Of a DNA stretch of 33,314 bases, positions 351 to 33,314 are shown in pieces (the first letter of the stretch is position 1; each line of letters opens with the position of its first letter). The notes under the pieces are model-generated. The model had not been told where the DNA came from. It saw only the letters and a program-made list of their open reading frames with translations, and did not search any database. A program made the translations under genes and the position numbers. The DNA is from Syntrophobacterales bacterium (GTDB taxonomy: Bacteria; Desulfobacterota; Syntrophia; Syntrophales; UBA2210): positions 1-33,314 of the forward strand of contig JAHDRK010000063.1 of the NCBI GenBank assembly GCA_018433345.1, read 5' to 3'.

Positions 351-356
351 GCCCGG

Positions 357-11096: not shown

Positions 11097-11121
11097 ACTT
11101 TCGACTGTTGTTTTAAAGAAA

Positions 11122-11144: not shown

Positions 11145-11177
11145 AATACGCGTGAACGAAGTGAAAGAGCGAGGAAC

Positions 11178-12338: not shown

Positions 12339-12341
12339 GTC

Positions 12342-12647
12342 ATGACCAAAGAATTCTGGACCATTTCCGAGGTGCTCGAAATTTTTGAAATGAGACGTCA
12401 GTTGCTGGCGGCCTTGGAAGAGGAAGATATCGTTACTCCCCGGCGACGGGAGGACGACGGCGAAAGCCTTTACTCCAGGGAGGAAATGGAGATGCTCCGG
12501 GTCGCCAAAATCCTCGCGGATGAGCTGGAAGTAAACCTGGCGGGCGTCGACATTATCCTGAGGATGCGCCGCCAGATGATAGAAATGCGCAAGCAGTTCG
12601 ACGATATATTGGCGGACATCGCGGAGAAGCTCAAGGAACGGCTGTAA
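12342..12647 (+). CDS. MerR-type / CbpM-like modulator of DnaJ
   Basis: 101 residues. The N-terminal part (FWTISEVLEIFEMRRQLLAA) looks like a MerR-type winged helix, followed by EDIVTPRR, LYSREEMEMLRVAKILADEL and a C-terminal amphipathic helix (RMRRQMIEMRKQFDDILADI). This layout is that of CbpM, which binds the J domain of CbpA and inhibits it. It starts 3 bp after the dnaJ stop, so the two are translated together. A heat-shock repressor of the HspR type is an alternative, but no DNA target sites were seen. The partner here is a zinc-finger DnaJ rather than a typical CbpA. Confidence 0.7.
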   Translation: MTKEFWTISEVLEIFEMRRQLLAALEEEDIVTPRRREDDGESLYSREEMEMLRVAKILADELEVNLAGVDIILRMRRQMIEMRKQFDDILADIAEKLKERL

Positions 12648-12722
12648 CACGCACCGGCCGGCGAAGCCCTTCCAGCCGCCCGTGGTTTTGCAGGGGATCG
12701 AGGGAAGATTTCCCCGAAGTCC

Positions 12723-14165: not shown

Positions 14166-14260
14166 CATACCCCTCCAGGAGTCGGGACATCCCCATATCC
14201 CGTGTGCCGGGCGAATTAACATTCATCGGCACAAATCCTGGAACATTGACCTGATCCCGG

Positions 14261-14282
14261 GAGGGCGGCTTTGAACGCCCTC
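14261..14282 (-). other. Stem-loop between the aminopeptidase and PAS-GGDEF genes
   Basis: GAGGGCG (14261-14267) and CGCCCTC (14276-14282) form a perfect 7-bp stem with an 8-nt loop. No T-run follows on either strand, so it is not a standard terminator. It lies about 100 nt before the PAS-GGDEF start, and no convincing promoter was found in this 276-bp gap (14166-14441). Confidence 0.3.
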
Positions 14283-14441
14283 GCGACAGTCTTTCATATG
14301 AGGTAGCGATTTAGGTGCCTGAGATCTTCGGAAAACGAATCCCCTCAATCCCCCTGTTGCCGGAATTTTAAAGGGCTGCTCCGAACCTGACCCATTGGTA
14401 AAAGTCACAAAATGACCGGTCAGCGCCTCTCATGACTTTCG

Positions 14442-15653: not shown

Positions 15654-15721
15654 GCGTTTTTTGATCTCCTTTCCCTTAAGGATCGTTCGAGTAGGTGGCC
15701 CGAAAGGGTGCCATGCCTAAG

Positions 15722-16297
15722 CTATAGCATGCCCCGCCTGAATATGCGGTCGAAAAAGGCCTTCTTTTCCCGGGGATAATAGATGGCCTCTCCCCTGTCC
15801 ACTATAAGGATCCCTTCCAAGTGGTCGATCTCGTGCTGAACGACGCGGGCAAGATAGCCCTGGTAGCGCTTGTTGATTTTATTGCCCAGCCTGTCGAAAC
15901 CCCGCACCTTTATCTCCGTCCACCGTTTCACGTCGGCGGTAATGTAGGGGCATGAAAGGCACCCCTCGCCGTCCTCTACTTCCTGGCCGCGGTACTGGGT
16001 TATCCGGGGATTGACGAGCACCTCGCAGTCGTCGCCGTTTTTCGGGATCGGCTCGTCTCCGGTGAAATTACCGGTCCTGAAAACTATTATGCGCTTGCTC
16101 ATGCCGATCTGGGGTGCGGCCAGCCCCACGGCGTCGTTCCGGCCGAGAAAGGCTTCGACCAGGGTATCCACGTCCCCCTTTGCTTCTTCTGAGAAAGGAA
16201 TGGGGACTTCGTCGGCCTTGCGCCTCAAAAGGCGCACCTGTTCCTCGTCGATAGAGTCCTCGTTCCACAATTTCCAGATTTGTCGATTCTGTTCCAT
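15722..16297 (-). CDS. def: Peptide deformylase
   Basis: All three deformylase motifs are present: GLAAPQIG (residues 58-65), EGCLS (111-115, Cys113 metal ligand) and HEIDH (155-159, two His ligands and the catalytic Glu). The enzyme removes the formyl group from the initiator Met of new proteins. The 192-residue length includes an N-terminal stretch of about 30 residues that differs from the compact housekeeping form; the gene also lacks fmt beside it, so it may be a second copy. ATG 16297 is preceded by AAAGGGA. It has a promoter at 16374-16402 and a 26-bp palindrome just upstream. Confidence 0.92.
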   Translation of the reverse strand: MEQNRQIWKLWNEDSIDEEQVRLLRRKADEVPIPFSEEAKGDVDTLVEAFLGRNDAVGLAAPQIGMSKRIIVFRTGNFTGDEPIPKNGDDCEVLVNPRITQYRGQEVEDGEGCLSCPYITADVKRWTEIKVRGFDRLGNKINKRYQGYLARVVQHEIDHLEGILIVDRGEAIYYPREKKAFFDRIFRRGML

Positions 16298-16373
16298 AAT
16301 CCCTTTATCCCCGGCATTCCCCCACCGGGGAGACATGACGTATTTGGACCTTTCACCAGTCCGTCATTACCGC

Positions 16374-16402
16374 TTTATAACACCTTAACACCGCGAATTC
16401 AA
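16374..16402 (-). promoter_or_regulatory. def: Sigma-70 promoter of the deformylase gene
   Basis: On the minus strand TTGAAT (16402-16397), a 17-bp spacer and TATAAA (16379-16374): four and five consensus bases, respectively, with ideal spacing. The leader to ATG 16297 would be about 70 nt. No other promoter-like match was seen between rmuC and def. Confidence 0.6.
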
Positions 16403-16406
16403 CGGA

Positions 16407-16432
16407 GATTTCTTCAAACGTTCAAAGAAATC
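16407..16432. promoter_or_regulatory. 26-bp near-perfect palindrome next to the def promoter
   Basis: GATTTCTT (16407-16414) and AAGAAATC (16425-16432) are exact inverted copies, and the centre AACGTT (16417-16422) is itself palindromic. Only the two positions between each arm and the core break the symmetry. It ends 4 bp from the -35 hexamer at 16397-16402, the usual place for an activator or repressor site. No T-run follows, so a terminator is unlikely. Confidence 0.5.
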
Positions 16433-16569
16433 ACATAAGATCGTCGTATTTTCCCCTCACTCTCCATTTTATCCGCGTACGGGAGAGGTCCCCAGTCTTC
16501 CTGTACGCTCATTATCGACAGCTCCTTCCCTGATTTCACTTCTTGCCCGCGGCGCGATGGGCGATCTTT

Positions 16570-17964
16570 TCAATCATCTCCGTCCTCCTTCGCCTCCGGC
16601 ACGGCGAGCGCGCGAGGCGTCGTCTCAACAGGTTGCACGAGGGGAACCTCGGCTCCGGTGGCCGCCCCCAGGTCCTTGAACCTCCGCGCTGCGGGCAGGA
16701 CCCTGGCCTCCATGGAACCGACCGCCTTGTTGTAGGCGGCATTGGCCTTTTCCAGGCCTTTACCGATATCCCCGATGTGCTCGGCCAACGTTTTCATTCG
16801 ATCGTACAACTGTTTTCCCAGATCGCTGATCTCCTGGGCGTTCTTGGCGATTTGCTCCTGCCGCCACCCATACGCGACAGCCCTGATCAGGGCGATCAGG
16901 GTCGTCGGGGTCGCCAGCACTACGCCTCGTTCAAGGCCGTACTCGATGAGACCATGGTCCGCGTCAACCGCCGCACCGAAGAAAGACTCACCGGGAATAA
17001 ACATGACTACGAATTCAGGCGCCTTGGGAAACTGCGCCCAGTATTGTTTGTCGGTGAGGGTATTCATGTGTGTGCGGACCTGTGCCGCATGCCGCGACAA
17101 GGCGTCCTTCCGTTCCGCCTCCGATTCCGCGGCGATCGCGTCGAGATAGGCATCCAGGGAGACCTTGGCGTCAACGACAATCTCCCGTCCCGCCGGCAGC
17201 CGAACGATAAGGTCGGGCCGCAGTCGCCTTTCATCGCCATCGGCGGTCACCTGTTCCGCGAAATCGCAATGTTCTGACATCCCCGCCAGTTCGACGACCC
17301 GGCGCAGCGTCATCTCACCCCAACGGCCCCGTACCTGAGGCTTTCGCAGCGCCGTCACGAGGTTCGCCGTCTCTTTTTGCAATTGTTGATGGCTGGTCGT
17401 CAATAGCCGCAGGTGTTCCGTTAGTCCGGAGTAGGCCTCCTGCCTGTCCTTTTCGATCGTGCGTACATGTTCCTCGAACTTTTTGAGCGAGTCCTCCAGG
17501 GGTTTGACCATGCCTTGAATGGCCTCCTGCCTTTTGCCTAGGTCACCACGGGCGTCCGTCAACACCTTGTCGAGCGTTTCCTTGGCCAGCTGGAGGAATG
17601 CCTCAGTGCTGTTGTTGAGAGTATCACCGGCAAGGGCCTTGAAGGTGTCCGTGAGCTTGTTCTTCGCGTCCTCCAGCAGCCTTTTCTCTTCTTCGAGGCG
17701 CCGGACGGTCTCCTCCAGTTGCGTCTCGGCCTTCACCCTGGCATTTGTCTCGTTGGCCAATTGCTCCCGAAGATTCGTCACTTCTTCGAGGCCTTTCTGA
17801 TTCTGCGCGCGAAGTTCCGCGACGGTCGCTTCCAGTCCGGCGGCCCGGCGCTTGGATTCCTCTAATTCGACCGTTAGGGATTTCGTGGCCCGGGCGGAAG
17901 CGAGTATCCACGCCACGACGCCGCCGGTAAACACACCGGCGAAGACACAAATGATATATTCCAT
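16570..17964 (-). CDS. rmuC: RmuC-family DNA recombination protein
   Basis: 464 residues from ATG 17964. An N-terminal transmembrane segment ([20 protein letters not shown]) is followed by a long coiled coil (about 30-190, including [20 protein letters not shown]) and the RmuC domain with [58 protein letters not shown] and [20 protein letters not shown]. RmuC has a PD-(D/E)XK nuclease-like core and limits inversions at short inverted repeats. GGGGAGG lies 10 nt before the chosen ATG. Copy 1 of the 29-bp repeat lies 21 bp upstream of the start, with no recognisable promoter between. Confidence 0.92.
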
Positions 17965-17984
17965 ATTGATCCAACCTCCCCTCA

Positions 17985-18013
17985 TGGGGTCAAATCTTTA
18001 AACTTGACATTTC
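17985..18013 (+). repeat. 29-bp dispersed repeat, copy 1
   Basis: Identical over 29 bp to copies at 22878-22906 and 23910-23938, all in the same orientation. The core GTCAAATCTTTAAACTTGAC is an imperfect palindrome (exact GTCAA/TTGAC arms, TTTAAA inside). After the repeat, copy 1 shares a C-rich ACCGCC-type flank with copy 2. Such repeats in deltaproteobacterial genomes resemble REP-type elements mobilised by Y1 (IS200-like) transposases; no such gene is in the window. Confidence 0.8.
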
Positions 18014-18243
18014 ACCTACCGCCGCCGGGCCAACGTGGCTTATTATTTCATGGCCCGTCTCCAGCTTATGGATCTGTAGCGCGGCGAGCGGCTCTTTTCC
18101 ATAGGCTATCACATTGTGGCGCCCCACTCGTTCCGCTGCGGCGTGACCGAGGGAATCGGTCCGGGATTATTAATGAAAATCAAGGTCCCGCCCTTGTTCA
18201 TGCCTAGGGCTGTTTTCCCGAGAACCACCCCCACGACGGACAT
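17990..18243 (-). pseudogene. Possible frameshifted remnant ending in the repeat
   Basis: On the minus strand, ATG 18243 opens a frame reading MSVVGVVLGKTALGMNKGGT and ILIFINNPGP-like sequence. A second frame takes over near 18165 and reads SLGHAAAERVGRHNVIAYGK, then LAALQIHKLETGHEIISHVG, and ends GEMSSLKI at a stop (17990-17992) inside repeat copy 1. Each part looks protein-like, but neither alone is a gene, so a broken gene is possible. Family not recognised; chance open frames in GC-rich DNA remain a real alternative. Confidence 0.25.
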
Positions 18244-19230: not shown

Positions 19231-19452
19231 TCTGCCTTTCAAGCTAAATATCCAGGCCACTCCCACTTTCATGAGTCGACGATCTTTCTGAGATCACTAC
19301 TGGGGTAACGTTTAATTTGATGCAATTCGAACATTTAAGTCCGTTGACTAACGTCACGTGCTGTGGAAGTATAAAGTTTCGCTCCACAATATAAAGGGTC
19401 ACTTTCTTATCACTTTACCTCAGCCATCGAGACGGCTTTCATGGAGGAGGCC
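19231..19452. other. Gap before the DUF748 gene
   Basis: TTGACT (19344-19349) is followed by TATAAA only after 20 bp, too long for a standard promoter; with AGTATA as the -10 the spacing is 18 but the match is poor. The palindrome CACGTG (19356-19361) lies between them. The region probably contains the promoter of the DUF748 gene, but I cannot fix it. Nothing else was recognised. Confidence 0.3.
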
Positions 19453-22400
19453 ATGAGAGAGAAGGCAAAAGAACGCGCTCTTTTTTTGTTGAGAAACAAG
19501 GTGACGATTGTTGCCGCCCTGGTGATAATTCTATACACGGCGGCGGGATTTTTCGCCCTTCCCTTCCTTATCGGCCGCTATGCCCCCGGCATACTGGGAG
19601 AACGGCTTCAAAGCGACGTATCGGTCGAAAAGATTTCTATCAATCCTTACAGCCTGGCGTTGGAGATACAGGGGCTCGCTATAAAGGATCCGACGGGCGG
19701 ACCGCTTGTGGGCTTCGAGCGACTTCACGTCAACTTCCAGCTCAGTAGTCTTTTTCGCTGGGCGCTGACATTCAGGGATATTGTCCTGGAGCGGCCCTAT
19801 CTCAATGTCGTGCTCGACGGTGAGGGGAATCTTAACCTGCGGCGTCTGGCCGGTCCGGAGAAGGAAGAAGCTCCGGAGTCCGGGAGCGAAGTCGAGGAGA
19901 ACGTAACGAGTCCCTTGCGCATGGTTCTGTTCAACGTGGAGATAAACGAGGCCCGTATCGATGTGACCGACAAGCGGCAGGATGTTCCCGCAACGACATC
20001 ATTCCACCCCTTGACCGTTCACCTCGCGGACATTTCCACCATTCCCGACCGCGAGGGGGGATATTCACTCACGGCAACCGCCGCTGACGGAGCGACGTTC
20101 GATTGGACCGGCAACCTGATCCTGCATCCCTTCAGATCCGAAGGCGAGCTGGCCTTTAGAAATATTTCCATGGAAACCCCATGGGCCTTTAACCGATCCA
20201 TGCTGAACATTATGCCTCCAGGAGGAGAAGTGAGCCTGGAGACGCACTACAAGGTCGATCTGGGGATGGACGAAACCGTCGCCGTTCTTGACGATCTGCG
20301 CCTTTTCGCGTCGGGACTCGACCTGCAGCTGGAGGAAGCGGACAGGCCGTTTCTGTGGCAGACCGACATCGCGCTGGGCGTGGAAAGGTTCGATGTGACC
20401 GACCGAAAGGTCGAGGGACTGACGCTGGCAATTGAAGGCGGGGCCGTCGAGGTTGTCAGTGATCCCGAAGGGATTTTTAATTTTCAGAAAATTGTCCGCA
20501 CCGACGCGAAAGAAGCGGACACGACTTCCTCCGACAATGACTCCGATCCCGGAGACCCTTGGAATATCGATATTGCCGATGTCGAGTTGGCGGAGATATC
20601 CTTGCTTTTTCGCGATGAGAGCATGATGCCAGCACGAGTTTTTTCAGTGGAGGGAATCAATCTGAATTTCAGTGCCGACGTTGTTGCAACGGTGCCCCTG
20701 CTCGAGGTTTGCGTCAATGATGCGAGCCTCGTCTTGTCGGGGATTGAAGCGGGCTTCGGCAAGGCGGAGCGGCCCACACTGCAGGTGAATTCGATCACCG
20801 CTCAGGGGGGATCGCTTGACCTTGCAAATCGTTCGGCTTTCCTGTCACGTTTGGCAGTGAAAGATGGAACGGTCGACGTGATCCGGCATGATGATGAATC
20901 GCTGAACCTGACTCGCCTTTTCGATACGGCGGGATTCGCGGGAAACGGGCCCCACGGCTCTGTGAGGACGGAAGGAGGCGACCCCTGGAGTCTGTTTCTT
21001 GAAGATCTGGAATTGACGGGTTTTAATGTTCATTTCACCGACGAGACGGTGCGGCGGGGCGCCGCCGTGACGGATCTTGAGGACATCACCCTGAGCATGT
21101 CACGGTTTGACGGCAAATCGCCCTTTCCGTTCGAAGCGTCAATGGAGGTGAAGCAGGGAGGTGTCCTGAAGGTCTCGGGTACGATCGATCCGGCGGTAAC
21201 TTCCGTCGATTCGAGGGTGACACTCGAAAAGCTGGCCCTTGATCCCATTCAACCCTACCTGGCGCGGGTCGCCGACCTGACGCTGAAATCGGGCCGACTG
21301 TCGACGGCGGGATCTTTCGTGGTGAGCGAAAAGAGATCGGTGAACTACCGGGGACAACTGGAAATTATGAACCTGGACGTGGTTGAAAACAGCACGGGAG
21401 AGACGCTGTTGGGGTGGACACGGCTTAGAACCCCCGACCTGCGCTTCGGGTTGAATCCCGACGGTGTCGAGATGGACAGGATGATCCTGTTCGAGCCCAA
21501 GGGCAAGCTGATCATAGCCGAGGACGGCACGGTAAACGTGGTAGAGGCCTTCAGGCGAGAAGACAAGACTGTCGATCCGAAGCCGACGGACAGGACGTCG
21601 GAAAAAGGGAAAGATCCCTTTCCCGTGAAAATCGGTCGAGTAACCCTGGATAAAGGAACTCTTCAGTTTGCCGATTTCAGCCTGACCCCTCGGTTTCACA
21701 CATTGATCCATGAACTCAAGGGAACCGTTGCCGGGATTTCCTCGTTGCCCGGAACCCGCTCCAGGGTTGACCTTGACGGGCGGGTCGACCGTTACGGAAC
21801 GAGCACGATCGGGGGAGAGATCAATTTCTTCGATCCCAGGGAATATATTGATATATCCATGATCTTCAAAAACCTGGAGATGACAAATTTTACGCCCTAT
21901 TCGGGAAAATTTGCCGGAAGGAAGATCAACGCCGGCAGGCTGTCGTTGGACCTTAAATACCTGGTGGAAGACAGCCGCCTTCAGAGCCACAATAAGGTTG
22001 TAATAGAAAAGCTCGTCCTGGGTGACCGGGTTGAAAGTCCCGATGCGGTGAGCCTGCCCCTGGGGCTTGCCGTCGCTCTACTGAAAGACGCCGACGGCGT
22101 CATCAATATCGGGCTTCCCGTCACGGGCAACCTGGATGATCCGGAATTCCATATAGGACAGGTCATATGGCGGGCCTTTGTCAACCTGCTTACCCGAATG
22201 GTGAGTTCCCCCTTTCGGGCGCTTGCTTCGTTGCTTGGCGCGGGCGAAGAAACGCTGAACGAGGTTCTTTTCGATCCCGGTTCCAGCAGCATTCCGCCGG
22301 CCGAGCAGGAAAAACTGGACCTCCTGCTGGAGGGGCTTAAGAAGCGCCCCGAGTTGAAGCTCATTGTCACCGGACGTTGCGATCAAGAGGCCGATGGACG

Positions 22401-22866
22401 GGTTTTGCGGACCCTGCAGGTCAAAAAGTCCATTCTCAAGGCCTCCGGTGTGGAACCGGCGCCCGGAGAGGATCCCGGTCCGGTTGATTTCGGTGATGCG
22501 GCTGTCCGGGAAGTATTGAAGGCCTTGGTCGTCGAACGCTACGGGAATGAAGAATACGAGCGGATTAAGGCTGAGATGGTTTCTTTGCCGGAGAATGGAG
22601 ACGATGAAGCGGAGGAGCGGGAGGAAGTCCAGATCGACCCGGCTGTTTTGGCTCGTGGGCTTTTCGAATTTTTGGTGGAACAGGAGCCGATCGGGCAGGA
22701 AAGACTCTTGACACTGGCCGACGAACGGGCCCGTGCCGTGGCGGCCTACATGACGGGGGATCAGGGACTGGAACCTGAGCGTGTATCGGTGTCGGAGTCC
22801 GTTTACATCGAAAAAGGCGATTCCATTTCGGTGACACTCGATCTAGGCACCATGACCGATGAATGA
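19453..22866 (+). CDS. DUF748 / AsmA-like large envelope protein
   Basis: 1137 residues. A short basic N-terminus and one transmembrane helix (VTIVAALVIILYTAAGFFAL, about 17-40) anchor a long periplasmic part. The first beta-rich unit (SVEKISINPYSLALEIQGLA, FRDIVLERPYLNVVLDGEGN) is the AsmA/DUF748 repeat pattern and recurs several times (for example about 340-380 and 660-700). Near 938-990, LFDPGSSSIPPAEQEKLDLL and LKLIVTGRCDQEADG form an OmpA-like peptidoglycan-binding unit, usual for DUF748 proteins. AsmA-like proteins are thought to bridge the periplasm and carry phospholipids to the outer membrane, implying a diderm cell. ATG 19453 is used because GGAGGAGG lies directly before it; ATG 19441 is in frame. 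Copy 2 of the repeat follows 11 bp after the stop. Confidence 0.88.
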   Translation: MREKAKERALFLLRNKVTIVAALVIILYTAAGFFALPFLIGRYAPGILGERLQSDVSVEKISINPYSLALEIQGLAIKDPTGGPLVGFERLHVNFQLSSLFRWALTFRDIVLERPYLNVVLDGEGNLNLRRLAGPEKEEAPESGSEVEENVTSPLRMVLFNVEINEARIDVTDKRQDVPATTSFHPLTVHLADISTIPDREGGYSLTATAADGATFDWTGNLILHPFRSEGELAFRNISMETPWAFNRSMLNIMPPGGEVSLETHYKVDLGMDETVAVLDDLRLFASGLDLQLEEADRPFLWQTDIALGVERFDVTDRKVEGLTLAIEGGAVEVVSDPEGIFNFQKIVRTDAKEADTTSSDNDSDPGDPWNIDIADVELAEISLLFRDESMMPARVFSVEGINLNFSADVVATVPLLEVCVNDASLVLSGIEAGFGKAERPTLQVNSITAQGGSLDLANRSAFLSRLAVKDGTVDVIRHDDESLNLTRLFDTAGFAGNGPHGSVRTEGGDPWSLFLEDLELTGFNVHFTDETVRRGAAVTDLEDITLSMSRFDGKSPFPFEASMEVKQGGVLKVSGTIDPAVTSVDSRVTLEKLALDPIQPYLARVADLTLKSGRLSTAGSFVVSEKRSVNYRGQLEIMNLDVVENSTGETLLGWTRLRTPDLRFGLNPDGVEMDRMILFEPKGKLIIAEDGTVNVVEAFRREDKTVDPKPTDRTSEKGKDPFPVKIGRVTLDKGTLQFADFSLTPRFHTLIHELKGTVAGISSLPGTRSRVDLDGRVDRYGTSTIGGEINFFDPREYIDISMIFKNLEMTNFTPYSGKFAGRKINAGRLSLDLKYLVEDSRLQSHNKVVIEKLVLGDRVESPDAVSLPLGLAVALLKDADGVINIGLPVTGNLDDPEFHIGQVIWRAFVNLLTRMVSSPFRALASLLGAGEETLNEVLFDPGSSSIPPAEQEKLDLLLEGLKKRPELKLIVTGRCDQEADGRVLRTLQVKKSILKASGVEPAPGEDPGPVDFGDAAVREVLKALVVERYGNEEYERIKAEMVSLPENGDDEAEEREEVQIDPAVLARGLFEFLVEQEPIGQERLLTLADERARAVAAYMTGDQGLEPERVSVSESVYIEKGDSISVTLDLGTMTDE

Positions 22867-23341: not shown

Positions 23342-23926
23342 ATGGAAGGAACATCTGAAAGGAAAAAGATTCTCGCCATACTGGGAAGCCCGCGCAAGAA
23401 CGGAAACAGTGCCGTCCTGGCGAAGCACGTTATCACGGGGGCTGAATCAGCAGGGGCTGAGGTTGAATCGGTCTACCTGCATGGCCTCAACATTTCTCCA
23501 TGCCAGGCATGCTTCACCTGTCAAAAGAAGAAAAGCACGGGATGCGCCATCGACGATGACATGCAGTCCATATACCCGGCGCTGATAGAGGCCCGTGCCT
23601 GGATTCTTGCCTGCCCGGTGTACTGGTTCACCATGTCAGCCCAGATGAAGCTTTTCATGGATCGTCTTTTCGGGTTGGTCGCCTACGGACGGGATCCGTT
23701 CCGTGCCAAACGCATAGCCGTCGCCATGAGCTATGGAGACAGGGACCCCTTTGTGTCTGGTTGCGTGAACGCGCTGCGCGCCTTCCAGGACGCCTTTCGA
23801 TTCACCGGCTCCGATCTTGTTGGAATGGTGTACGGCAGCGCCTTAGAACCTGGCGAGATTGAAGCCGACGGAGCCCTTATGCGGAAGGCGGAGGATCTCG
23901 GCAGGAAACTGGGGTCAAATCTTTAA
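23342..23926 (+). CDS. Flavodoxin-fold NAD(P)H-dependent FMN reductase
   Basis: 194 residues: KKILAILGSPRKNGNSAVLA (FMN phosphate loop, about residues 8-27), CQACFTCQKKKSTGCAIDDD, a Cys cluster seen in iron-sulfur flavoprotein-like members of the NADPH-dependent FMN reductase family, and CPVYWFTMSAQMKLFMDRLF (flavin ring contact). It should reduce FMN or a quinone/aromatic acceptor in the cytoplasm. GGAGG sits 4 nt before ATG 23342. The last five residues (LGSNL) and the stop are encoded by repeat copy 3, so the original C-terminus was probably different. Confidence 0.88.
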   Translation: MEGTSERKKILAILGSPRKNGNSAVLAKHVITGAESAGAEVESVYLHGLNISPCQACFTCQKKKSTGCAIDDDMQSIYPALIEARAWILACPVYWFTMSAQMKLFMDRLFGLVAYGRDPFRAKRIAVAMSYGDRDPFVSGCVNALRAFQDAFRFTGSDLVGMVYGSALEPGEIEADGALMRKAEDLGRKLGSNL

Positions 23927-24588: not shown

Positions 24589-27500
24589 ATGAAAGCGTTC
24601 AGGAAGGCCCTTGTGTTGATCCTTGTTCCGGGGACGCTGTTTTTGCCGGCAACGGCAATCGCTTCGCCGGAGAGGGGAGCTCAATGGCTGGCGGCGCAAC
24701 AGCAGGAAAGCGGCGCAATAGTGTCGGAAGCGACGGCGGCCACGTCATTGCAGTCGACCGCCGAATCGTTGCTTACGTTGACGCTGTTGGAGCGAACCGG
24801 GGATGTCGATCTTCAGTCGACGCTCGATTACATCGGGAACAATCCTGACTACGAAACAGTGGAAAATCTGTGCCGAAGAATTCTCGTACATCTCAGCAAG
24901 GGACTTGCTTTTGACGATTTGCTTGATCAGCTTTTCCTGCACCAGTATCCGGGCGCTGGATACGGTTTTTACCCGGGATACGGCAGCGACGTTCTCAGTA
25001 CGGCCCATGCCCTCCAAGTGCTTTCCCGCGCCGAAATTACCGACCGGCGTGCTTCATCCGCCATCGGATTCCTGTTGCAAAGGCAAAAAGAAGACGGGAG
25101 CTGGTCCCTGCAAGACAACACCCCCAATACCGCGTTGACCGCGCAGGCGATGCTCGCCCTCTGGGAATACAGGAGAATATTCAATGTTCAGGATGCCCTG
25201 GAGATGGCCGGCGACTATCTCTTACGGACACGAAATGTCGACCACCTGTGGGACGACCTGAACACCACTTCGCAGGTTCTGATCGCGCTTTCGAGCTACC
25301 TGGTTGATCGAAGCGGACTGGCGGAAAGTATAGCGGCGCTACAGGATATTCAGTCGCCCCAGGGTGATTTCAACCAGGACACCTACTCGACGGCGCTCGC
25401 AGTGAGGGCGCTTTTCATCGCCGAAACCCCCGCTCCTGACGAAATAACCATTGGGGGAACGTTGATCGACGGCGACAGCGGGATACCGATAGCCGGCGCG
25501 ACGATTGCCGTGACCGGTGAGGCGGAACTTACTGCCCCTTCCTCGATTGACGGGACTTTCCTGATACGGGCTATTCCGCCGGGATCCTATTCGGTGATCA
25601 TTTCAAAAGATGGATACCATCGTCTTTCGTTGAATGCTTCCCTTGGTGTGGGTTCAAAGGCCGACCTGGGAGTGTTGCAGCTTTCGAAATACCAAACGGA
25701 CCCCGATACAGGAATGCCCGTTGCCACGGGAACAGTTAGAGGTGAAGTGTCGGATCGGAGAACCGGCAGGCCTGTTGCGGGTGCAATCGTATCGGTACGG
25801 GGTACGGATCTGTCCGCTGTGACCGGCGCTACAGGAAGCTACCAGTTGAACCATGTTCCTGCCGGGCACGTTATTCTTCAGGTTCAGGCTGGTGGCTACG
25901 GAAGCATTCAGGCATCGGTTGAACTTGCGCGAGGATATACGCTTATATTTTCACCAGCCCTAAGCGCGGCAACTCTTTCAGGGGTTTTGATTGAAGGTGT
26001 TGTAATTGAACGGGACAGCGGGATGCCGCTGCCTGGAGCGTCAATAGAAGTGTATGGGGGCGGGGAAGTAATCGCATCCGCGCAGGCCGATCTAAACGGA
26101 AGGTATGAAATCACGGGCCTCCCTGTGGGAGAATTGACCGTAGCGGCATTTCACGACGGATATCATGCCGTGTCCGTTTCGATTGAGGCGCAGGACGGTG
26201 CGAGGTTCATATATTCCCCCCAGATGGATCCGGTGTCCGGTGATGTACAGTTATCTACGGGTTCTTTTACAGGCATTGTTGTTGATGCCGTAAATGGGCG
26301 CGGACTCTCCGACGTCTCTGTTTCGGTCGAATACCCGGAAGGTGAAATGTATTGTCTTATGACGGGGCCGGATGGTGAAATTGTCACCGGCAATCTCCCT
26401 GTGGGCGATGCATCAGCCACCTTCAATCTTGAAGGTTACGACACCGAAAAAAGGCGGGTTTTTATTCAGGGAGATCTCGAGACTGATATCGGCGAGATTC
26501 CTATGAATCCCGAAGGCGTGGCCGATACTGCAAGGGCATTTGGATGCCTGGTCGACATTCGAAACAGTGTCCCGGTTTCAGGAGGCATTATATCGGCTGA
26601 GAACCTCGATGCTGGCATGTTTTTCGAAACGATCAGTCTTGACGATGGTTCATTTGTTCTTGACGGCCTGATCCCCGGCGAATACCAGGTAACAATCAGT
26701 GCATCGGGGTACAGTGTCGTTACATTCAACATGATTACAACAGAGGGCGAAGGGCTTGATCTGGGCGAAGTGCGGTTGCGTGCCCCCGGTGTGGACGAGC
26801 TTCTGCCGGATCTGTCAATTCTGGCGCTCGACGTGAGTCTCTGGTCATCGGATCCGACAAGCTTTGAACTATCGGGTACGATAGGCGTTACAATTATTAA
26901 CCGCGGCAATGCTGCCGTAAAGTCGCCCTTCCAGGTATATGCCTACGAGGACCTTGCCGGCGAAGGTATGTCCGAAGAGGGTAACAGATTATTTGGTGTG
27001 ATTACTGTCCAGGCATCACCGGAACAGCCTCTTAACGCCGACAGTACTCGCGTTGTCACCATGCCGCTTTCCGGCGTCCAGTCTTTCAGAGATGCCCCGA
27101 TAATCGTTCATATCGATCCAAAAAATATTGTGGCCGAGCTTTCCAAGGAAAACAACAGGGTTAGTACAGCTAGCGCCTGCACGAACGAGACCGAAAAACC
27201 GAATCTTGATCTCTGTCTGTGTATGGATTCATCAGGCAGTATAAGTAATTCGGAGTTTCAACTTCAACTGGAAGGAACGGCAAGGGCCATTGAAGATGAA
27301 AACATTGTTCCACGGGACGGATCGGTCCGCATGTCGGCATTGCAATTTGCCGGCAGCACTTATGATGAACTTAGTCCGACCGTCGTCGAGGAAGGCAATG
27401 TTCACCAAATTGCCGAGACAATAAGGTCTATACGGAAGCGAGGAGGCGGTACCTCTATTCACAGCTGCGTAATCAGGGCGTCCGACGTGCTGTATGCCGT

Positions 27501-30363
27501 TGAACCGGAAAGTGTCTGGAAAGTGATCGATGTATCCACCGACGGTCGTTCAGATTATAACAGTGCCGTCGCTGCGTCGGCCAAGGCCGGAGAAATGGGG
27601 ATCGACGTGATAAACGCCATCGGTGTGGGAACGAACATCGATATTAATTTGCTGAATGCGATCGTATTTCCGCAGCCTCCCGGCGGTGAGCGAGGATTCG
27701 TGGAAGTTATTTCGGGGTACCAGGAATATATTGAGGCCATCGCGGGTAAAATGCAGCGCGAAACGCGTTTGCCCGATCTAACCGTGGGGGGCGCCCGACT
27801 CATAGACAATGGTCTCGGTGAAGCGGGGCAGGTATCCTTTATTTTAGGTAACGCAGGGGCTTCAGCCATTTCAGAAGACGTGATCATGTCTGTTTACGAC
27901 GGAGATCCCGGTGGAAATCGCATCATTGCGGAAAGCGTCTTTACCGAAGGGTTGCCGATCGATTGCTACGAAAAAATAACCCTTGACGGGGTGTATCCCT
28001 CCGATTTCCTGAGTGGGACTCTAGTCGTTGCTGCCGGGATCGATGCGGAATTTACCGAATGTAACCGGGAGAACAACCGCCACTCGATTCCCGTCCATTC
28101 CACGCTGGGAAGTATCAGCCTGACGCTCGACAAGAGCCTTTTCGGACCCGCCGAAACGGTGAGTATGACCGCGAACGTTACAAACGCAGGGTCGCGCTCA
28201 GGCGCCTACAGGGTTGCGCTTGCCATTTATGATCTACAGGGAATCGAAGTGCATCGATTCGATACATTCGAAACCGGAGAGATTCCCTCGTCAGGATCGG
28301 ACGACTATAATCGCCAATGGAACACGGGACATACAGCGGCGGCGTCCTACAACGTCGAGGCACGGCTGTACAGTCTGGGCGGCGGTCTTCTCGACACGTC
28401 CGAAGTTGCCTTTACTATTACTCACCTCGACTCAGACCAGCCTGATCCCGATCCCGATCCGGAACAGGGTATTGCGGCCGCACGTATCAGGGCCACCACG
28501 GACAGGCCCGGCTATCATGTCAATGACACCGTAGTTATCGATGTCCTGGTTCGGAACATTACCACCAATCTTTCCATAGAAAATGCAGTGGCCCATGTGA
28601 CGGTGATCAATCCCGGCGGTAATATCGTTCATGACCAGACCCGCGCCCTTGAAACGTTGGTTCCCGGCCAGACGACGGAATTCAAACAGACACTTGTTCT
28701 TGCGCAGGCTCCCGAGGGCTCCTACCAGCTGGCGGTCCAATTGCGAAGCCGGGATGGAGTGTTGTATGGCGGTGACCGGGGTGGTTTTGTCGTGGCCGAC
28801 GATATTCAAAGAGCCCTTCGTGGTGGCGTGAGAGCGGCGCATCCGATTCTCTACGCCGGTGAAAATCAGACCTGCACTTATACTGTAACCAATTCAGGAA
28901 CAGCTGCGGTCCCGGGGGTGTCGATCGATCAGATGGTTATCTGCCCGGCTGATGAAACCGTAATCGAACAAAAGACGCGGGACATTGATCTTCCGGTGGG
29001 CGCCGTTACGGAAGACAGCATAGTTTTTTCGACATCCGGGTTCCAGCCGGGAACTTACGCCTGTGTGCTGGATACCAATATAAACGGGGAAAAGTTGGAT
29101 TCCTCGTACGCGTTGTTCCGGGTTGAGGCGTCTCCCATCAACATGGATGGAGAGCTGAGTATCGGTTCGCAGGGGCGACTCCTGGTGCTGGTTGATCCGA
29201 TTAAAAAGCAAAAGGAAAACAGGGACGATAGCAGTACTATATATCTGCGCCGGCTTCTCGAGGATGCAGGGTGGTTGGTTACTATCGTAGATACCGGAGC
29301 CGATTTTAAGAGAGAGATGGATACCGGAGGCTACAGCCTGTACGCTCTGTTTAGTGAATCCGTGTATCTCGACAAAGAGACTCAAGAGAAGTTGAATGTC
29401 ATGGCGGCCGGCGGCGACGGATTGCTGGCGGCCGGCGGCCATGATCGCCGCAACGTCTTTATTGAAGAATCTCTGGGTGTATCCCTTCGAGGCAATGTGC
29501 CCCATGCCTGCGGAGTGGCCGTTGATCACAGCGAACTCGGCGATCCTTGGTCTGAGATGTTCTCGTCTTCCACCAAGAGACTTAACTTCGTTACCCAGGG
29601 CGCGGTGGTCATTGGGCGCTATATCGACAATTACAATTTCGGGAATACAGACAGCCGAACGCATCAATCCGTCGGTTGTGACCCAAATCCGTGCGGCGGT
29701 TTCGAAGGTGAGGGGGGCGAAAATGCTATTTCAGTGCATGAATATTTCAATGGGCGTTCCGTTTTTGTCGGGTTTGACCTGCTGTCCGAGGCTGAGCTCT
29801 ATCACAGGCGCAACCAGGATTCCTCCAACAATCCTTTTGCTTCTTTTATGCTGTCCGCCCTTGCCTATATAAATCCCGATCCCTTGGTGCCGCGGCCCGG
29901 AACGGTGGTGCCGGTGATAGTCGATGTTCATAATCTTGGTATGGCCACAGATGGGAAGGTTATGCTGAATTTCTCCGACAATTTGACCGTCGTTGACGGT
30001 GGAGAGCTGACTGTTTGTCTCGACTCAGGCGGCAGGACCTGGGAGTACTCGTTCTTCATGCAAGAAGATGAAAGCTTGAGCATGATGCTATATGTACGAT
30101 TACCGGGCGAGTCGGCCGATTCATCGAGGTGTTGCGCAAGAAGATGTCCGAAAAAGAAAATATGTTTGAACGCTCAAAGATCAATTGGATGCGATTCCCG
30201 ACCCCTTGAGAAAAGGAAACCCCATAATCGTCCGCGATCAAGCGATCCTGACTCCTGCGAAGAAGAGGTCTGGGCGGACTTGTTGATTCAATCCGGTCTC
30301 GAACCCTATCTGACCACGCACGTAGAAAAACGCTATTCCCTCGTTTTGGAACAAGAAAACTAG
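24589..30363 (+). CDS. Giant exported multidomain protein (toroid repeat, Ig-like, CARDB, VWA)
   Basis: 1924 residues from ATG 24589, placed directly after GGGAGGAG; ATG 24577 is also in frame. A signal peptide (ALVLILVPGTLFLPATAIAS) is followed by an alpha/alpha-toroid repeat region like prenyltransferase/squalene-cyclase folds (about 30-280; AIGFLLQRQKEDGSWSL). Five carboxypeptidase-regulatory-like Ig modules begin near 287, 380, 467, 560 and 648 (for example GxVxDxxTGxPVxGAxVxV). A CARDB-like module starts near 738. The VWA domain (about 870-1060) has a full MIDAS: D880-x-S882-x-S884, T955, D985. More CARDB-like and Ig-like modules follow, with a PDPDPDP linker near 1285. A Rossmann-like domain (about 1527-1720; RLLVLVDPIKKQ) precedes the end. 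Residues 1845-1890 are suspiciously Cys/Arg-rich (see findings). Probably a secreted or surface adhesion/scaffold protein working with the next gene. Confidence 0.85.
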   Translation: MKAFRKALVLILVPGTLFLPATAIASPERGAQWLAAQQQESGAIVSEATAATSLQSTAESLLTLTLLERTGDVDLQSTLDYIGNNPDYETVENLCRRILVHLSKGLAFDDLLDQLFLHQYPGAGYGFYPGYGSDVLSTAHALQVLSRAEITDRRASSAIGFLLQRQKEDGSWSLQDNTPNTALTAQAMLALWEYRRIFNVQDALEMAGDYLLRTRNVDHLWDDLNTTSQVLIALSSYLVDRSGLAESIAALQDIQSPQGDFNQDTYSTALAVRALFIAETPAPDEITIGGTLIDGDSGIPIAGATIAVTGEAELTAPSSIDGTFLIRAIPPGSYSVIISKDGYHRLSLNASLGVGSKADLGVLQLSKYQTDPDTGMPVATGTVRGEVSDRRTGRPVAGAIVSVRGTDLSAVTGATGSYQLNHVPAGHVILQVQAGGYGSIQASVELARGYTLIFSPALSAATLSGVLIEGVVIERDSGMPLPGASIEVYGGGEVIASAQADLNGRYEITGLPVGELTVAAFHDGYHAVSVSIEAQDGARFIYSPQMDPVSGDVQLSTGSFTGIVVDAVNGRGLSDVSVSVEYPEGEMYCLMTGPDGEIVTGNLPVGDASATFNLEGYDTEKRRVFIQGDLETDIGEIPMNPEGVADTARAFGCLVDIRNSVPVSGGIISAENLDAGMFFETISLDDGSFVLDGLIPGEYQVTISASGYSVVTFNMITTEGEGLDLGEVRLRAPGVDELLPDLSILALDVSLWSSDPTSFELSGTIGVTIINRGNAAVKSPFQVYAYEDLAGEGMSEEGNRLFGVITVQASPEQPLNADSTRVVTMPLSGVQSFRDAPIIVHIDPKNIVAELSKENNRVSTASACTNETEKPNLDLCLCMDSSGSISNSEFQLQLEGTARAIEDENIVPRDGSVRMSALQFAGSTYDELSPTVVEEGNVHQIAETIRSIRKRGGGTSIHSCVIRASDVLYAVEPESVWKVIDVSTDGRSDYNSAVAASAKAGEMGIDVINAIGVGTNIDINLLNAIVFPQPPGGERGFVEVISGYQEYIEAIAGKMQRETRLPDLTVGGARLIDNGLGEAGQVSFILGNAGASAISEDVIMSVYDGDPGGNRIIAESVFTEGLPIDCYEKITLDGVYPSDFLSGTLVVAAGIDAEFTECNRENNRHSIPVHSTLGSISLTLDKSLFGPAETVSMTANVTNAGSRSGAYRVALAIYDLQGIEVHRFDTFETGEIPSSGSDDYNRQWNTGHTAAASYNVEARLYSLGGGLLDTSEVAFTITHLDSDQPDPDPDPEQGIAAARIRATTDRPGYHVNDTVVIDVLVRNITTNLSIENAVAHVTVINPGGNIVHDQTRALETLVPGQTTEFKQTLVLAQAPEGSYQLAVQLRSRDGVLYGGDRGGFVVADDIQRALRGGVRAAHPILYAGENQTCTYTVTNSGTAAVPGVSIDQMVICPADETVIEQKTRDIDLPVGAVTEDSIVFSTSGFQPGTYACVLDTNINGEKLDSSYALFRVEASPINMDGELSIGSQGRLLVLVDPIKKQKENRDDSSTIYLRRLLEDAGWLVTIVDTGADFKREMDTGGYSLYALFSESVYLDKETQEKLNVMAAGGDGLLAAGGHDRRNVFIEESLGVSLRGNVPHACGVAVDHSELGDPWSEMFSSSTKRLNFVTQGAVVIGRYIDNYNFGNTDSRTHQSVGCDPNPCGGFEGEGGENAISVHEYFNGRSVFVGFDLLSEAELYHRRNQDSSNNPFASFMLSALAYINPDPLVPRPGTVVPVIVDVHNLGMATDGKVMLNFSDNLTVVDGGELTVCLDSGGRTWEYSFFMQEDESLSMMLYVRLPGESADSSRCCARRCPKKKICLNAQRSIGCDSRPLEKRKPHNRPRSSDPDSCEEEVWADLLIQSGLEPYLTTHVEKRYSLVLEQEN

Positions 30364-30369
30364 ACCGTA

Positions 30370-30390
30370 GCCGGCGACGACTTCGCCGGC
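30370..30390 (+). other. Intergenic stem-loop between the two exported-protein genes
   Basis: GCCGGCGA (30370-30377) and TCGCCGGC (30383-30390) form a perfect 8-bp GC-rich stem with a 5-nt loop, just after the stop at 30361-30363. No T-run follows, so it is more likely a processing or mRNA-stability hairpin within an operon than a terminator. Confidence 0.45.
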
Positions 30391-30439
30391 GCTCCTTCAC
30401 GCGAAGTAAGCAGAAAAAACAGCAGAGGAAAGGCAAGCC

Positions 30440-33314
30440 ATGCAGAAAGGATCGCGCGGAATTTCAATACAATCGCTAAGGAAAAGGTCGTTTGCCGGGT
30501 CTGTGGGCGCTCTAACCCTGTTTATCTTTTTCTTTGTATTCTACATAGCCCCTGTCGGCGACTGCTTGGCCGAAGTTGCATCGGACAAAAATCGATCAGG
30601 CATGAGAGTGAAGGCCGCAACGAACAGCACACCGGACGGTAAATTCGGCGATTGCATGGAAAGGTTGCGCGAAGTGGTGGTTTATGAATTGCCCCGAGCC
30701 GTCGAGAAGCGTCGAACCGAACGCCGTTGGCTTGATCGCGCCCGCGAATTGTTTATGGAGCCTGATAATCTTACCAGTGATGAAATCGAAAAACTAAAAG
30801 TCCTGCATGACAACCTTCTCATCTTGCGCAATGAGATCGACCGGGAATTTCAACGTGACAAAGAACGTCTGCGGAATATTGATCTGCCCTCGGAAGTCCG
30901 ACGACTTATGGAGGAGCGTCACAAAGAGGCCCTTGCACGCTTCAAAACCGGACATGAGTTCATGCAGTCTCAACTGCGGAATTTACTTGATGCCAAAGGC
31001 GCAAGGCAATTAGAGGCACTTGAAAACCTAAAATCCGCCCTCGAGCGGGAATCTTTTGGAAGGCGGCACGCTCCCATCGATCCGGAACGGCTGCCCTGGG
31101 GGGTGCCAAGTGAAAAGGTTCGTAAGCCTGTCACCGAACCCGAGGATTTTAAGGACATACTTGGCATAACCATGGCACCGAAACACCCCCTGCTCGCATC
31201 GGCCGAACCATTTCCGGGGATGCTGGCGCAGGGATTTTCTGTAAACGATATTCCGCATGACGCCGACCTCGCCGAAACCCTGGAAATAAAGTTCACCGAC
31301 GATATTATAGAACTTGCCGAAACCCTGAACAACGACCCGATCGAAATCTACACCTGGGTTCGCAACAACGTCCACTTCATTCCCAGTTACGGCTCCATCC
31401 AGGGTGCACAGCATACCCTGGAAACCCGCAGCGGCAACGCTTTGGATACGGCAAGCCTTTTGATCAGTCTCCTTCGCGCCGCCGGCATCCCCGCACGCTA
31501 TGTCTATGGGACGATTGACGTTCCCGTAGAACAGGCCATGAACTGGGTCGGCGGCGTAGAGACGCCCGAAGCCGCGGCGAACTTGATGGGCCAGGGCGGC
31601 ATTCCGGTTCTTCTGATGATGCAGGGGGGCACAGCCACCCATATCCGGATGGAGCACGTCTGGGTCCAAGCCTGGGTCGACTATTTCCCCAGTCGGGGTA
31701 TGAAGCACCGGGAAGGCGATTCCTGGATTCCCCTGGACGCCTCCTTCAAGCAATACGAGTTTACCGAGGGCATGGACCTGCGGGGAAACGTTCCCTTCGA
31801 CGCCGAATCATTGATTGCCCTTATCGAAGACAATGCGATAATCAACGAAGAGGAGGGTTGGATTCAACACATACCCATAGACGACATGGACCAGAAGCTC
31901 GAGCTTTACCAACAGCAGGTAGAAGACTACATCAACCGGCAGAACCCCGAGGCCACCCTGGGCGATGTGCTGGGGATGCAGGACATCAAGGCCATCGTCC
32001 CCCGTCCCCTGGCCGCCGGTCTTCCCTACCGTCATATCGCCACCGCCGAGTCCTTCAGCGAAGTCCCGGACAGCCTCCGCCACCGGTTCAAGTACAAACT
32101 GGCTACCATGATTCATGATGCCCCGGGAGACACCATCATCGCCATTGACGAACCCACGGCAAGCCTGGTCGGCAAGACCCTTGCCATGAGCTTTCGACCG
32201 GCCGCGGAAGAAGACGAAGCAATCATCATGGCGCATCTTCCCCAGCCGGACCCTGAAACGGGTGAAATAGATACTTCCCTGCTGCCCGACAGGCTTCCGG
32301 GGTATCTCATCAACATGACCGCTGAATTCACCATCGACGGCGTTGTGGCGGCAGAAAGTCAAGCGGGGGTGATGGGCGCCGAGCTTCACGAAACCATGGG
32401 GCTATGGAAACCCGGGAATTTGTGGAACACCAGCACTAACTTCCCTGCCGTCGGCGAATACCGTGCCATCGGACTGGACCTGCAGGGGGGCAACCCCGAG
32501 CAGGCGGCCCGTCTCCAGGAAAACATCGAGCGAACCCGCAAGGCGCTCGAGAGCATGGACGAGGCCCGGTTGGCCTCACTGACCCGTCACGACGTTGTGG
32601 GGGACCTGTTTTATGCGACAATCTTCAGCTGGTTTGCCCTCAATAGTGTACAAGACCAGATAGCGGCACGTGCATCGGGGATCGTCACCTACCGTGCGCC
32701 CAGTTACGGACTGTTCGGCACCAGTCTTCAGACGCACTATCTCTATGGTGTTCCGCGATACGTCAAGTTCGGCGGATTGGTCATGGATGTTGATCACATG
32801 TCGAGTCAGGTGGTGAGCACAACCAATGACGACGAACAGCGGACAGCCTTCATTCAGGCCGTCGGCGCGCGGTCATCAGCCATGGAGCCCCTGGTTCCCG
32901 AGATGATGTTCAGTACCGAGGAATCTCCGGGCCACGGCATCAGCGCCGTCAAGGCCCTGGCCCTTGCCGCCGAAGAAGGCCGGCGCATCTGGACTATAAC
33001 GGCGGAGAACCTCGACCTTGCCCTTGAAAATATCGATCTTTCCGCCGATGCGAAGACCGACATCCGAAACGCCGTGCGCACGGGCAAAGTCGTCACCGCC
33101 CACGAGTCGAAACTCAACTTTCATGGCTGGGTCGGCTCGGGCTACATCATCATGGACCCCGAAACCGGCGCCGGAGCATACCTCATCAGCGGGGGGATGA
33201 GTGGGGGGTATTATGTTGGGAAAAACAATGCGGCGATTGGGATTCGCACTTTGCTGGAAAAAGAAGGTTTGTCGGTTGACGGCGGAGACGCGGCAATCGC
33301 TGTTTTAGGTTTAA
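30440..33314 (+). CDS. Exported transglutaminase-like protein, 3' end outside window
   Basis: The frame is open from ATG 30440 (AGAGGAAAGG upstream) to the window end: 958 codons without a stop. A basic n-region and hydrophobic stretch (GALTLFIFFFVFYIAPVGDC) form a signal peptide, probably cut after CLA. Residues about 70-200 are charged and helical. The transglutaminase-like core is at about 290-440: FIPSYGSIQGAQHTLETRSG, SGNALDTASLLISLLRAAGI, EHVWVQAWVDYFPSRG and WIPLDASFKQYEF. His406 and Asp433 fit the catalytic pair, but the expected Cys position is Ala334. The later part (MDPETGAGAYLISGGMSGG) resembles large deltaproteobacterial transglutaminase-like proteins, some continuing into RHS-type repeats. 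It follows the 24589 gene by 76 bp, so both are probably one operon. Confidence 0.85.
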   Translation, partial: MQKGSRGISIQSLRKRSFAGSVGALTLFIFFFVFYIAPVGDCLAEVASDKNRSGMRVKAATNSTPDGKFGDCMERLREVVVYELPRAVEKRRTERRWLDRARELFMEPDNLTSDEIEKLKVLHDNLLILRNEIDREFQRDKERLRNIDLPSEVRRLMEERHKEALARFKTGHEFMQSQLRNLLDAKGARQLEALENLKSALERESFGRRHAPIDPERLPWGVPSEKVRKPVTEPEDFKDILGITMAPKHPLLASAEPFPGMLAQGFSVNDIPHDADLAETLEIKFTDDIIELAETLNNDPIEIYTWVRNNVHFIPSYGSIQGAQHTLETRSGNALDTASLLISLLRAAGIPARYVYGTIDVPVEQAMNWVGGVETPEAAANLMGQGGIPVLLMMQGGTATHIRMEHVWVQAWVDYFPSRGMKHREGDSWIPLDASFKQYEFTEGMDLRGNVPFDAESLIALIEDNAIINEEEGWIQHIPIDDMDQKLELYQQQVEDYINRQNPEATLGDVLGMQDIKAIVPRPLAAGLPYRHIATAESFSEVPDSLRHRFKYKLATMIHDAPGDTIIAIDEPTASLVGKTLAMSFRPAAEEDEAIIMAHLPQPDPETGEIDTSLLPDRLPGYLINMTAEFTIDGVVAAESQAGVMGAELHETMGLWKPGNLWNTSTNFPAVGEYRAIGLDLQGGNPEQAARLQENIERTRKALESMDEARLASLTRHDVVGDLFYATIFSWFALNSVQDQIAARASGIVTYRAPSYGLFGTSLQTHYLYGVPRYVKFGGLVMDVDHMSSQVVSTTNDDEQRTAFIQAVGARSSAMEPLVPEMMFSTEESPGHGISAVKALALAAEEGRRIWTITAENLDLALENIDLSADAKTDIRNAVRTGKVVTAHESKLNFHGWVGSGYIIMDPETGAGAYLISGGMSGGYYVGKNNAAIGIRTLLEKEGLSVDGGDAAIAVLGL

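What the first reader, a model, noticed from the sequence alone, without database searches (positions are those of the whole stretch)
24589..33314. Paired giant secreted proteins: toroid/Ig/VWA scaffold plus pseudo-transglutaminase
Two codirectional genes 76 bp apart both encode exported proteins. The first combines an alpha/alpha-toroid repeat domain, five regulatory-like Ig modules, CARDB-like modules, a VWA with complete MIDAS residues and a late Rossmann-like domain. The second has a transglutaminase-like core and continues past the window. An alpha/alpha toroid with Ig-like modules superficially recalls complement/alpha-2-macroglobulin architecture, but no GCGEQ thioester motif is present. 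A cell-surface adhesion or capture complex is the most reasonable inference; I know of no named system with this exact pair.
Basis: partly seen in the sequence, partly recalled or inferred. Interest (0 to 1): 0.65.

Follow-up and report, generated by a model that had tools for sequence, protein, structure and literature searches.

The report
Polymorphic toxin with giant toroid partner
The second gene is the constant front part of an exported bacterial weapon whose toxic tip is swapped like a drill bit, and the giant first gene is its conserved partner, probably the surface or delivery scaffold, which I found described in no paper available here.

Summary
Gene A (24589-30363) is an exported 1924-aa protein with an alpha/alpha toroid, five CarboxypepD_reg modules, CARDB and VWA; gene B (30440 to the contig end) is an exported pseudo-transglutaminase. 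The pair is real: in 30 genomes, 26 of 31 toroid hits lie within 16 kb of a B-family gene on the same strand (12 of 17 in genomes not used for the profile; about 0.24 expected).

The "adhesion or capture complex" reading misses what B is. B homologues share a conserved trunk ending at a GAGAYxIxGGxNGG-like motif, then a tip that changes completely. Within one genome, trunks 81-97% identical carry unrelated tips (17-31%). Truncated orphan cassettes follow many main genes. Tips include a NucA/NucB DNase beside a SUKH immunity gene, Ntox37 and pretoxin-HINT; most compact tips carry hydrophobic helices and a tightly abutting small downstream ORF. B is therefore a polymorphic-toxin pre-protein. Zhang et al. 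2012 described inactive-transglutaminase polymorphic toxins, RHS-fused. New here: the RHS-less class with tips directly on the trunk, and the conserved toroid partner with exchangeable heads. Both toroid and transglutaminase lack catalytic signatures. The window's own tip is cut by the contig end, so its toxin is unknown.

The parts
24589..30363 (+). Gene A: exported toroid/CarboxypepD_reg/CARDB/VWA/MG2-like giant partner, 1924 aa (alternative start 24577)
   Evidence: ORF; Pfam; homologous partner beside the B gene in most loci
24589..24663 (+). Predicted signal peptide of A (cut after ...ATAIA)
   Evidence: sequence; hydrophobic N-terminus shared by partners
24661..25485 (+). alpha/alpha toroid of A; no DxDD and no GCGEQ
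   Evidence: AlphaFold pLDDT 90; profile match to squalene-hopene cyclases and relatives; Foldseek; motif scan
25450..26800 (+). Five CarboxypepD_reg (prealbumin-like) modules, approximate range
   Evidence: PF13620 7e-55, 5 stretches
26806..27165 (+). CARDB module
   Evidence: PF07705 6e-14
27205..27765 (+). VWA/DUF1194 head with MIDAS residues; replaced by FG-GAP or He_PIG/Big_9 in other partners
   Evidence: PF06707 2e-20, PF00092 3e-11; partners
28492..28737 (+). MG2-like module
   Evidence: PF01835 5e-7, 5e-5 on the sub-segment
29161..30000 (+). Late conserved domain (suspected Rossmann/GATase-like; fold not shown)
   Evidence: conserved in homologues; no Pfam family
30121..30363 (+). C-terminal tail of A, R/K/C-rich, no counterpart in homologues; possible frame disturbance
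30440..33314 (+). Gene B: polymorphic-toxin pre-protein, 958 aa read, cut by the contig end
30488..30574 (+). Hydrophobic export signal of B (approximate)
   Evidence: sequence; same position in homologues
31295..31741 (+). Pseudo-transglutaminase domain
   Evidence: PF01841 7e-18; Foldseek best hit 3isr, prob 1.00
31439..31441 (+). Ala in place of the catalytic Cys (SGNALDTA)
   Evidence: alignment to 3isr; 0 of 43 homologues keep Cys
31655..31657 (+). Retained His (EHVWV)
31736..31738 (+). Retained Asp (WIPLDAS)
31742..33209 (+). Conserved trunk ending at GAGAYLISGGMSGG, the exchange boundary
   Evidence: alignments; identity drop at the boundary
33210..33314 (+). First 35 residues of the variable tip; the rest and any immunity gene lie beyond the contig
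   Evidence: position by alignment; contig end

Best explanation
Genes A and B form a two-gene polymorphic-toxin locus for conflict between bacteria. B is exported through Sec, carries a helical N-terminal segment, a catalytically dead transglutaminase and further trunk domains, and ends in an exchangeable C-terminal toxin tip; the tip is replaced by recombination at the GAGAYxIxGGxNGG boundary with orphan cassettes stored downstream, and an adjacent small gene protects the producer. Many tips have hydrophobic helices, either alone (likely pore-forming) or ahead of a soluble toxin domain (likely helping it cross a membrane). A is the dedicated partner: a signal-peptide protein whose dead cyclase-like toroid plus Ig-type stalk carries an exchangeable adhesive-type head (VWA here). 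I infer that A displays or anchors B at the cell surface, perhaps by docking the pseudo-transglutaminase, and brings it to a target cell. Shown: pairing, export signals, dead catalytic sites, tip exchange, orphan cassettes, toxin and immunity domains in relatives. Inferred: physical A-B binding, surface display, delivery, and that the window's own missing tip is a toxin. The confidence given is for the polymorphic-toxin identity of B with A as its conserved partner; for A being the display or delivery scaffold it is about 0.5.
For: Trunk/tip contrast within one genome: L125's main gene versus the orphan cassettes on L125, L128 and L130 has trunks 87-94% and tips 17-31%; L114 81-93% vs 19-27%; L110's two cassettes 97% vs 26%; L115 92% vs 25%. 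Orphan cassettes on L110, L114, L115, L125, L128, L130-L133; 20 family matches in one genome. Toxin domains: DNase_NucA_NucB 5e-14 with the next gene SUKH-1 6e-9 (L111), DUF6310 1e-13 (L112); Ntox37 8e-20 and PT-HINT 2e-23. 25 of 32 compact tips have at least 2 TM-like segments versus 6 of 223 control C-termini, and 24 of 32 have a same-strand ORF within 200 bp, most of them abutting or overlapping the stop. Pairing: 26/31 toroid hits linked, 12/17 untrained, expected 0.24; across 297 genomes of the window's phylum, strong toroid and B co-occur, Fisher p 1e-14 (8e-10 without the training genomes). Surface clues: choice_anch_A as a separate gene between A and B in L005 and fused to the partner's C-terminus in L120 and L123; IPTL-CTERM sorting signal on L139's toroid partner. 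Exchangeable heads: VWA in the window and L111, FG-GAP in L008, He_PIG/Big_9 in L003. Dead catalytic sites.
Against: The window's tip and any immunity gene are not in the assembly, so its own toxin is inferred from relatives. Nothing shows A and B touch; A and B distances correlate over 18 loci (r 0.57, 0 of 20000 permutations) but only weakly within the compact class (r 0.30, about 2% of permutations), which also fits module reshuffling. Some RHS-fused members (L140-L146) have no adjacent toroid, so the partner is not universal. In a few loci the toroid gene lies downstream of B. Most small downstream ORFs match no immunity family. The tail of the window's gene A has no counterpart in relatives.
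Confidence: 0.85

Rival explanations
1. Polymorphic toxin as above, but A is not the delivery scaffold: it is a separate surface adhesin or matrix protein co-transferred in the same competition island, or a periplasmic folding or storage factor for B.
For: A has adhesin-type modules; RHS-fused B genes can lack it; within the compact class A and B distances correlate weakly, and A's nearest toroid is L111 (35%) while B's nearest is Marinobacter L003 (55%).
Against: Linkage is far above chance across distant groups, and the smallest partners (L138, L139) keep little more than the toroid with an Ig module, pointing to a toroid-specific role.
Confidence: 0.35
2. A cell-surface adhesion or capture complex without toxin function; B's variable hydrophobic C-terminus is a membrane anchor that drifts freely.
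For: Both proteins are exported; A carries VWA, Ig and CARDB modules; many B tips are hydrophobic.
Against: Known nuclease, Ntox37 and HINT tips and a SUKH immunity neighbour; an abrupt identity drop at one boundary between near-identical trunks; orphan cassettes. Anchors do not need these.
Confidence: 0.05
3. B toxins aimed at eukaryotes (host-directed effectors) rather than at bacteria.
For: From general knowledge, RHS and related toxins can act on eukaryotes; some tips lack an obvious immunity gene.
Against: Immunity-like neighbours and orphan cassette arrays are typical of bacterial conflict; carriers found are mostly environmental bacteria such as Undibacterium, Marinobacter and Parabeggiatoa.
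Confidence: 0.04
4. Complement/alpha-2-macroglobulin-like trap: toroid plus MG2-like modules entrap proteases.
For: MG2 match and toroid fold; complement chains appear among profile and fold hits.
Against: No thioester in any partner; terpene cyclases are closer; MG2 is below its curated cut-off.
Confidence: 0.03

Closest known systems
Polymorphic toxins with an N-terminal inactive transglutaminase (Zhang et al. [quoted passage not shown]
   Same: Export signal followed by a transglutaminase domain lacking catalytic residues; variable C-terminal toxins; several homologues here (e.g. L126, L136-L142) have the described RHS-fused architecture
   Different: The window class and its nearest relatives have no RHS; the tip sits directly on a conserved trunk. 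The held text describes them as always followed by RHS repeats and names no toroid, CARDB or VWA partner
CDI and RHS systems with orphan toxin-immunity cassettes
   Same: Constant trunk, exchangeable C-terminal tip, downstream orphan cassettes and small neighbours
   Different: No TPS domain or CdiB found; no RHS in the compact class; the partner is a toroid giant
Class II terpene cyclases (squalene-hopene cyclase, drimenyl diphosphate synthase)
   Same: alpha/alpha toroid fold, the best PDB match by profile and by structure
   Different: DxDD absent from all 28 toroid ORFs; fused to Ig-type stalks and heads; exported
Complement/alpha-2-macroglobulin
   Same: Toroid and MG2-like modules in one secreted protein
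   Different: No thioester, different order, weak MG2
3isr, transglutaminase-like putative cysteine protease
   Same: Fold of B's core (Foldseek prob 1.00, about 20% identity)
   Different: Catalytic Cys replaced by Ala

Membership tests
Polymorphic toxin (B family) | Conserved trunk with abruptly unrelated C-terminal tips | tested here: met
   Same-genome pairs: trunk 81-97%, tip 17-31%. For the window only the first 35 tip residues exist
Polymorphic toxin (B family) | Standalone/orphan tip cassettes nearby | tested here: met
   L110, L114, L115, L125, L128, L130-L133; none found in the window genome
Polymorphic toxin (B family) | Known toxin domains at the tip | tested here: met
   NucA/NucB, DUF6310, Ntox37, PT-HINT
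Polymorphic toxin (B family) | Adjacent immunity gene | tested here: met
   SUKH-1 beside the NucA/NucB tip; same-strand ORF within 200 bp in 24 of 32 compact tips, most without a family match
Polymorphic toxin (B family) | Toxicity and neutralisation | not testable with these tools
   needs experiment
Polymorphic toxin: window gene B itself | Toxin tip and immunity gene present | tested here: inconclusive
   contig ends inside the tip
Inactive-transglutaminase polymorphic toxin (Zhang 2012) | Transglutaminase with one or more of C/H/D lost, behind an export signal | tested here: met
   Ala-His-Asp in the window; 0 of 43 keep Cys; signals
Inactive-transglutaminase polymorphic toxin (Zhang 2012) | Followed by RHS repeats | tested here: not met
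   no RHS in the window gene as far as it goes; the complete compact relatives have none
CDI / two-partner secretion (T5SS) | TPS domain and CdiB-type outer-membrane partner | tested here: not met
   no such domain in A or B or in the upstream DUF748 protein
Active transglutaminase/cysteine protease | Catalytic Cys | tested here: not met
Class II terpene cyclase (toroid of A) | DxDD catalytic acid motif | tested here: not met
Complement/alpha-2-macroglobulin | GCGEQ thioester | tested here: not met

The most novel reading that the evidence does not exclude
A and B are a dedicated two-partner display and delivery platform for polymorphic toxins, unlike the T5SS, T6SS, T7SS, PVC and RHS routes: a dead cyclase toroid on a giant scaffold with exchangeable integrin-like heads (VWA, FG-GAP) holds a dead-transglutaminase trunk that presents swappable, often membrane-active tips, and the pair moves between phyla.
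Probability: 0.4. Interest if true: 0.8.

Novelty: new variant of a known kind. Interest (0 to 1): 0.62.

Why it matters
The role of inactive transglutaminases in polymorphic toxins has been a guess (surface anchoring) since 2012. A conserved toroid partner gives that guess a concrete candidate binding partner and makes it testable. The RHS-less class also puts the toxin tip directly on a sequence-defined trunk, so tips and immunity genes can be harvested systematically; many are hydrophobic and match no catalogued toxin family.

Tried and rejected
Complement/A2M-like trap (no thioester, terpene cyclases closer). Active transglutaminase or terpene cyclase (catalytic residues absent). Recovery of the missing end of B: no other contig shares the contig end and no second B fragment exists in the genome. 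Phages: no match in the phage collection; plasmids carry only distant relatives, mostly annotated as RHS. NCBIfam on tips and neighbours gave nothing useful. Structure search with the B model recovered only the transglutaminase core; the model is moderate (pLDDT 66, pTM 0.50), so its other domains were not interpreted. The late domain of A could not be assigned. Literature searches for polymorphic toxins together with squalene or terpenoid cyclase found no relevant paper, but only open-licence papers are held. Two unlinked toroid hits (G067:C332, G640:C148) and the one strong toroid-positive, B-negative genome in the phylum sample (G709) sit at contig ends, so they are censored rather than counter-examples. 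Three toroid hits (G469, G139, G307:C28) are genuinely unlinked at this distance.

Full report
What is there. The two ORFs are as described. Gene A: Pfam gives five CarboxypepD_reg stretches, CARDB, DUF1194/VWA and a weak MG2. The toroid was weak by sequence but is secure by profile, hitting drimenyl diphosphate synthase and squalene-hopene cyclases at about 1e-32 to 1e-34, and by AlphaFold at mean pLDDT 90, with Foldseek placing class II terpene cyclases first and complement lower. Gene B: Transglut_core at 7e-18; the model's best PDB match is the transglutaminase-like 3isr. The contig ends inside B.

The transglutaminase is dead across the family. The alignment with 3isr puts Ala where the catalytic Cys should be. 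Among 43 family members with a residue at that position, none has Cys (Ala 25, Asp 13, Ser 3, Pro 2), while His and Asp are mostly kept. In A, none of 28 toroid ORFs has DxDD and no partner has GCGEQ. Both signature folds look like binding or structural parts.

The pairing is real. A homologue search gave 12 loci, mostly beta/gamma-proteobacteria, 54-74% identical in the best segment. The family profile hit 26 of 369 genomes of one class (that of the Undibacterium genome) and 18 of 297 of the window's phylum. Annotating the neighbourhoods showed a toroid protein beside the main B gene in most loci. In 30 genomes, 26 of 31 toroid hits lie within 16 kb of a B-family hit on the same strand, 12 of 17 in genomes not used to build the toroid profile, against about 0.24 expected (coordinates; one of the 30 genomes, G113, was included by mistake and has no toroid hit). 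Across 297 genomes of the phylum, strong toroid hits (E up to 1e-23) occur in 11 of 18 B-positive and 1 of 279 B-negative genomes, Fisher p 1e-14, or 8e-10 without the training genomes. The 1e-23 cut was chosen after seeing the list, at the gap between long family toroids and short unrelated ones. The single exception, G709, has its toroid gene ending about 350 bp from the contig end, where B would follow.

B is a polymorphic toxin pre-protein. All homologues share a trunk ending at a GAGAYxIxGGxNGG-like motif, after which sequences are unrelated. Within one genome, trunks that are 81-97% identical over the last 150 residues carry tips at background identity, 17-31%. There are exceptions: some duplicate pairs keep the same tip (for example L131/L132), and the three Undibacterium trunks of G062 are more divergent (54-58%). 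Truncated copies that start mid-trunk and end in new tips follow the main gene in L110, L114, L115 and L125, and one genome has 20 matches. Tips include DNase_NucA_NucB with a SUKH-1 immunity neighbour, DUF6310, Ntox37 and pretoxin-HINT. Of 32 compact tips, 25 have two or more TM-like segments against 6 of 223 control C-termini, and 24 have a same-strand ORF within 200 bp, most abutting or overlapping the stop. In L111 and L112 the hydrophobic segments precede a soluble domain.

The partner. Compact-class partners share toroid, CarboxypepD_reg stalk, CARDB or MG2-like modules and a late conserved domain, but the central head differs: VWA in the window and L111, FG-GAP in L008, He_PIG/Big_9 in L003, where it is on a second gene. 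RHS-class partners can be little more than the toroid and an Ig module (L138, L139). A choice-of-anchor A domain is a separate gene between A and B in L005 and is fused to the partner's C-terminus in L120 and L123; L139's partner ends in an IPTL-CTERM sorting signal. These point to the cell surface but do not prove it.

Movement. In a tree of trunks the window's B groups with Marinobacter (100/99), and a member from the window's phylum (L115) groups with one from the class sampled around Undibacterium (L110), so the system crosses phyla. The four same-genus and fourteen same-family genomes searched have no member of the B family (one weak match in G006 is to a short transglutaminase-like protein). 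A and B distances correlate over all 18 loci but weakly within the compact class, so heads, toroids and trunks have probably partly reassorted.

Comparison with the known. Zhang et al. 2012 (PMC3482391) reported inactive transglutaminases in polymorphic toxins, behind a signal peptide and always followed by RHS, and proposed surface anchoring. The RHS-fused members here are that architecture. The held text (the first 300,000 of 357,715 characters, no figures) contains no toroid, squalene, prenyltransferase, CARDB or VWA, and no paper in the library links polymorphic toxins with cyclase-like toroids in a relevant way. Hence: a new variant of a known kind.

Limits. The window's own tip and immunity gene are unseen. 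No physical A-B interaction, localisation or toxicity is shown. Downstream ORFs were called mechanically. The TM count is a simple hydropathy scan. The chance expectation is a rough estimate from genome sizes. The literature library is partial.

Noticed in passing
window 30121-30363: The last ~80 residues of gene A are R/K/C-rich and have no counterpart in homologues, which instead carry a helical C-terminus; possible frame disturbance or local divergence.
   Followed up: partly
window 19441-22866: 1141-aa DUF748 (AsmA-like) protein with an OmpA-like segment, upstream of gene A, with an FMN-reductase-like ORF at 23342-23926 between them.
   Followed up: no
L125-L132 (one Parabeggiatoa genome, G067): About 20 B-family matches including many orphan tip cassettes on short contigs; a rich store of unclassified hydrophobic tips and small membrane ORFs.
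   Followed up: partly
L149 (G709:C75) 351-18104: 5917-aa protein with the family toroid and the late conserved domain at its C-terminus, ending about 350 bp from the contig end.
   Followed up: partly
L109:11971-14967: Second B gene in tandem whose 240-aa tip matches no Pfam or NCBIfam family; the tail looks ADP-ribosyltransferase-like by eye only.
   Followed up: no
L116:4634-7735: B homologue whose tip weakly matches a transglycosylase SLT domain (0.004, below cut-off), suggesting a cell-wall-degrading tip.
   Followed up: no
contig ends of C102 (window), G709:C75, G067:C332, G067:C173, G640:C148: Assemblies repeatedly break inside or next to these loci, so short-read genomes probably under-report the system.
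   Followed up: partly
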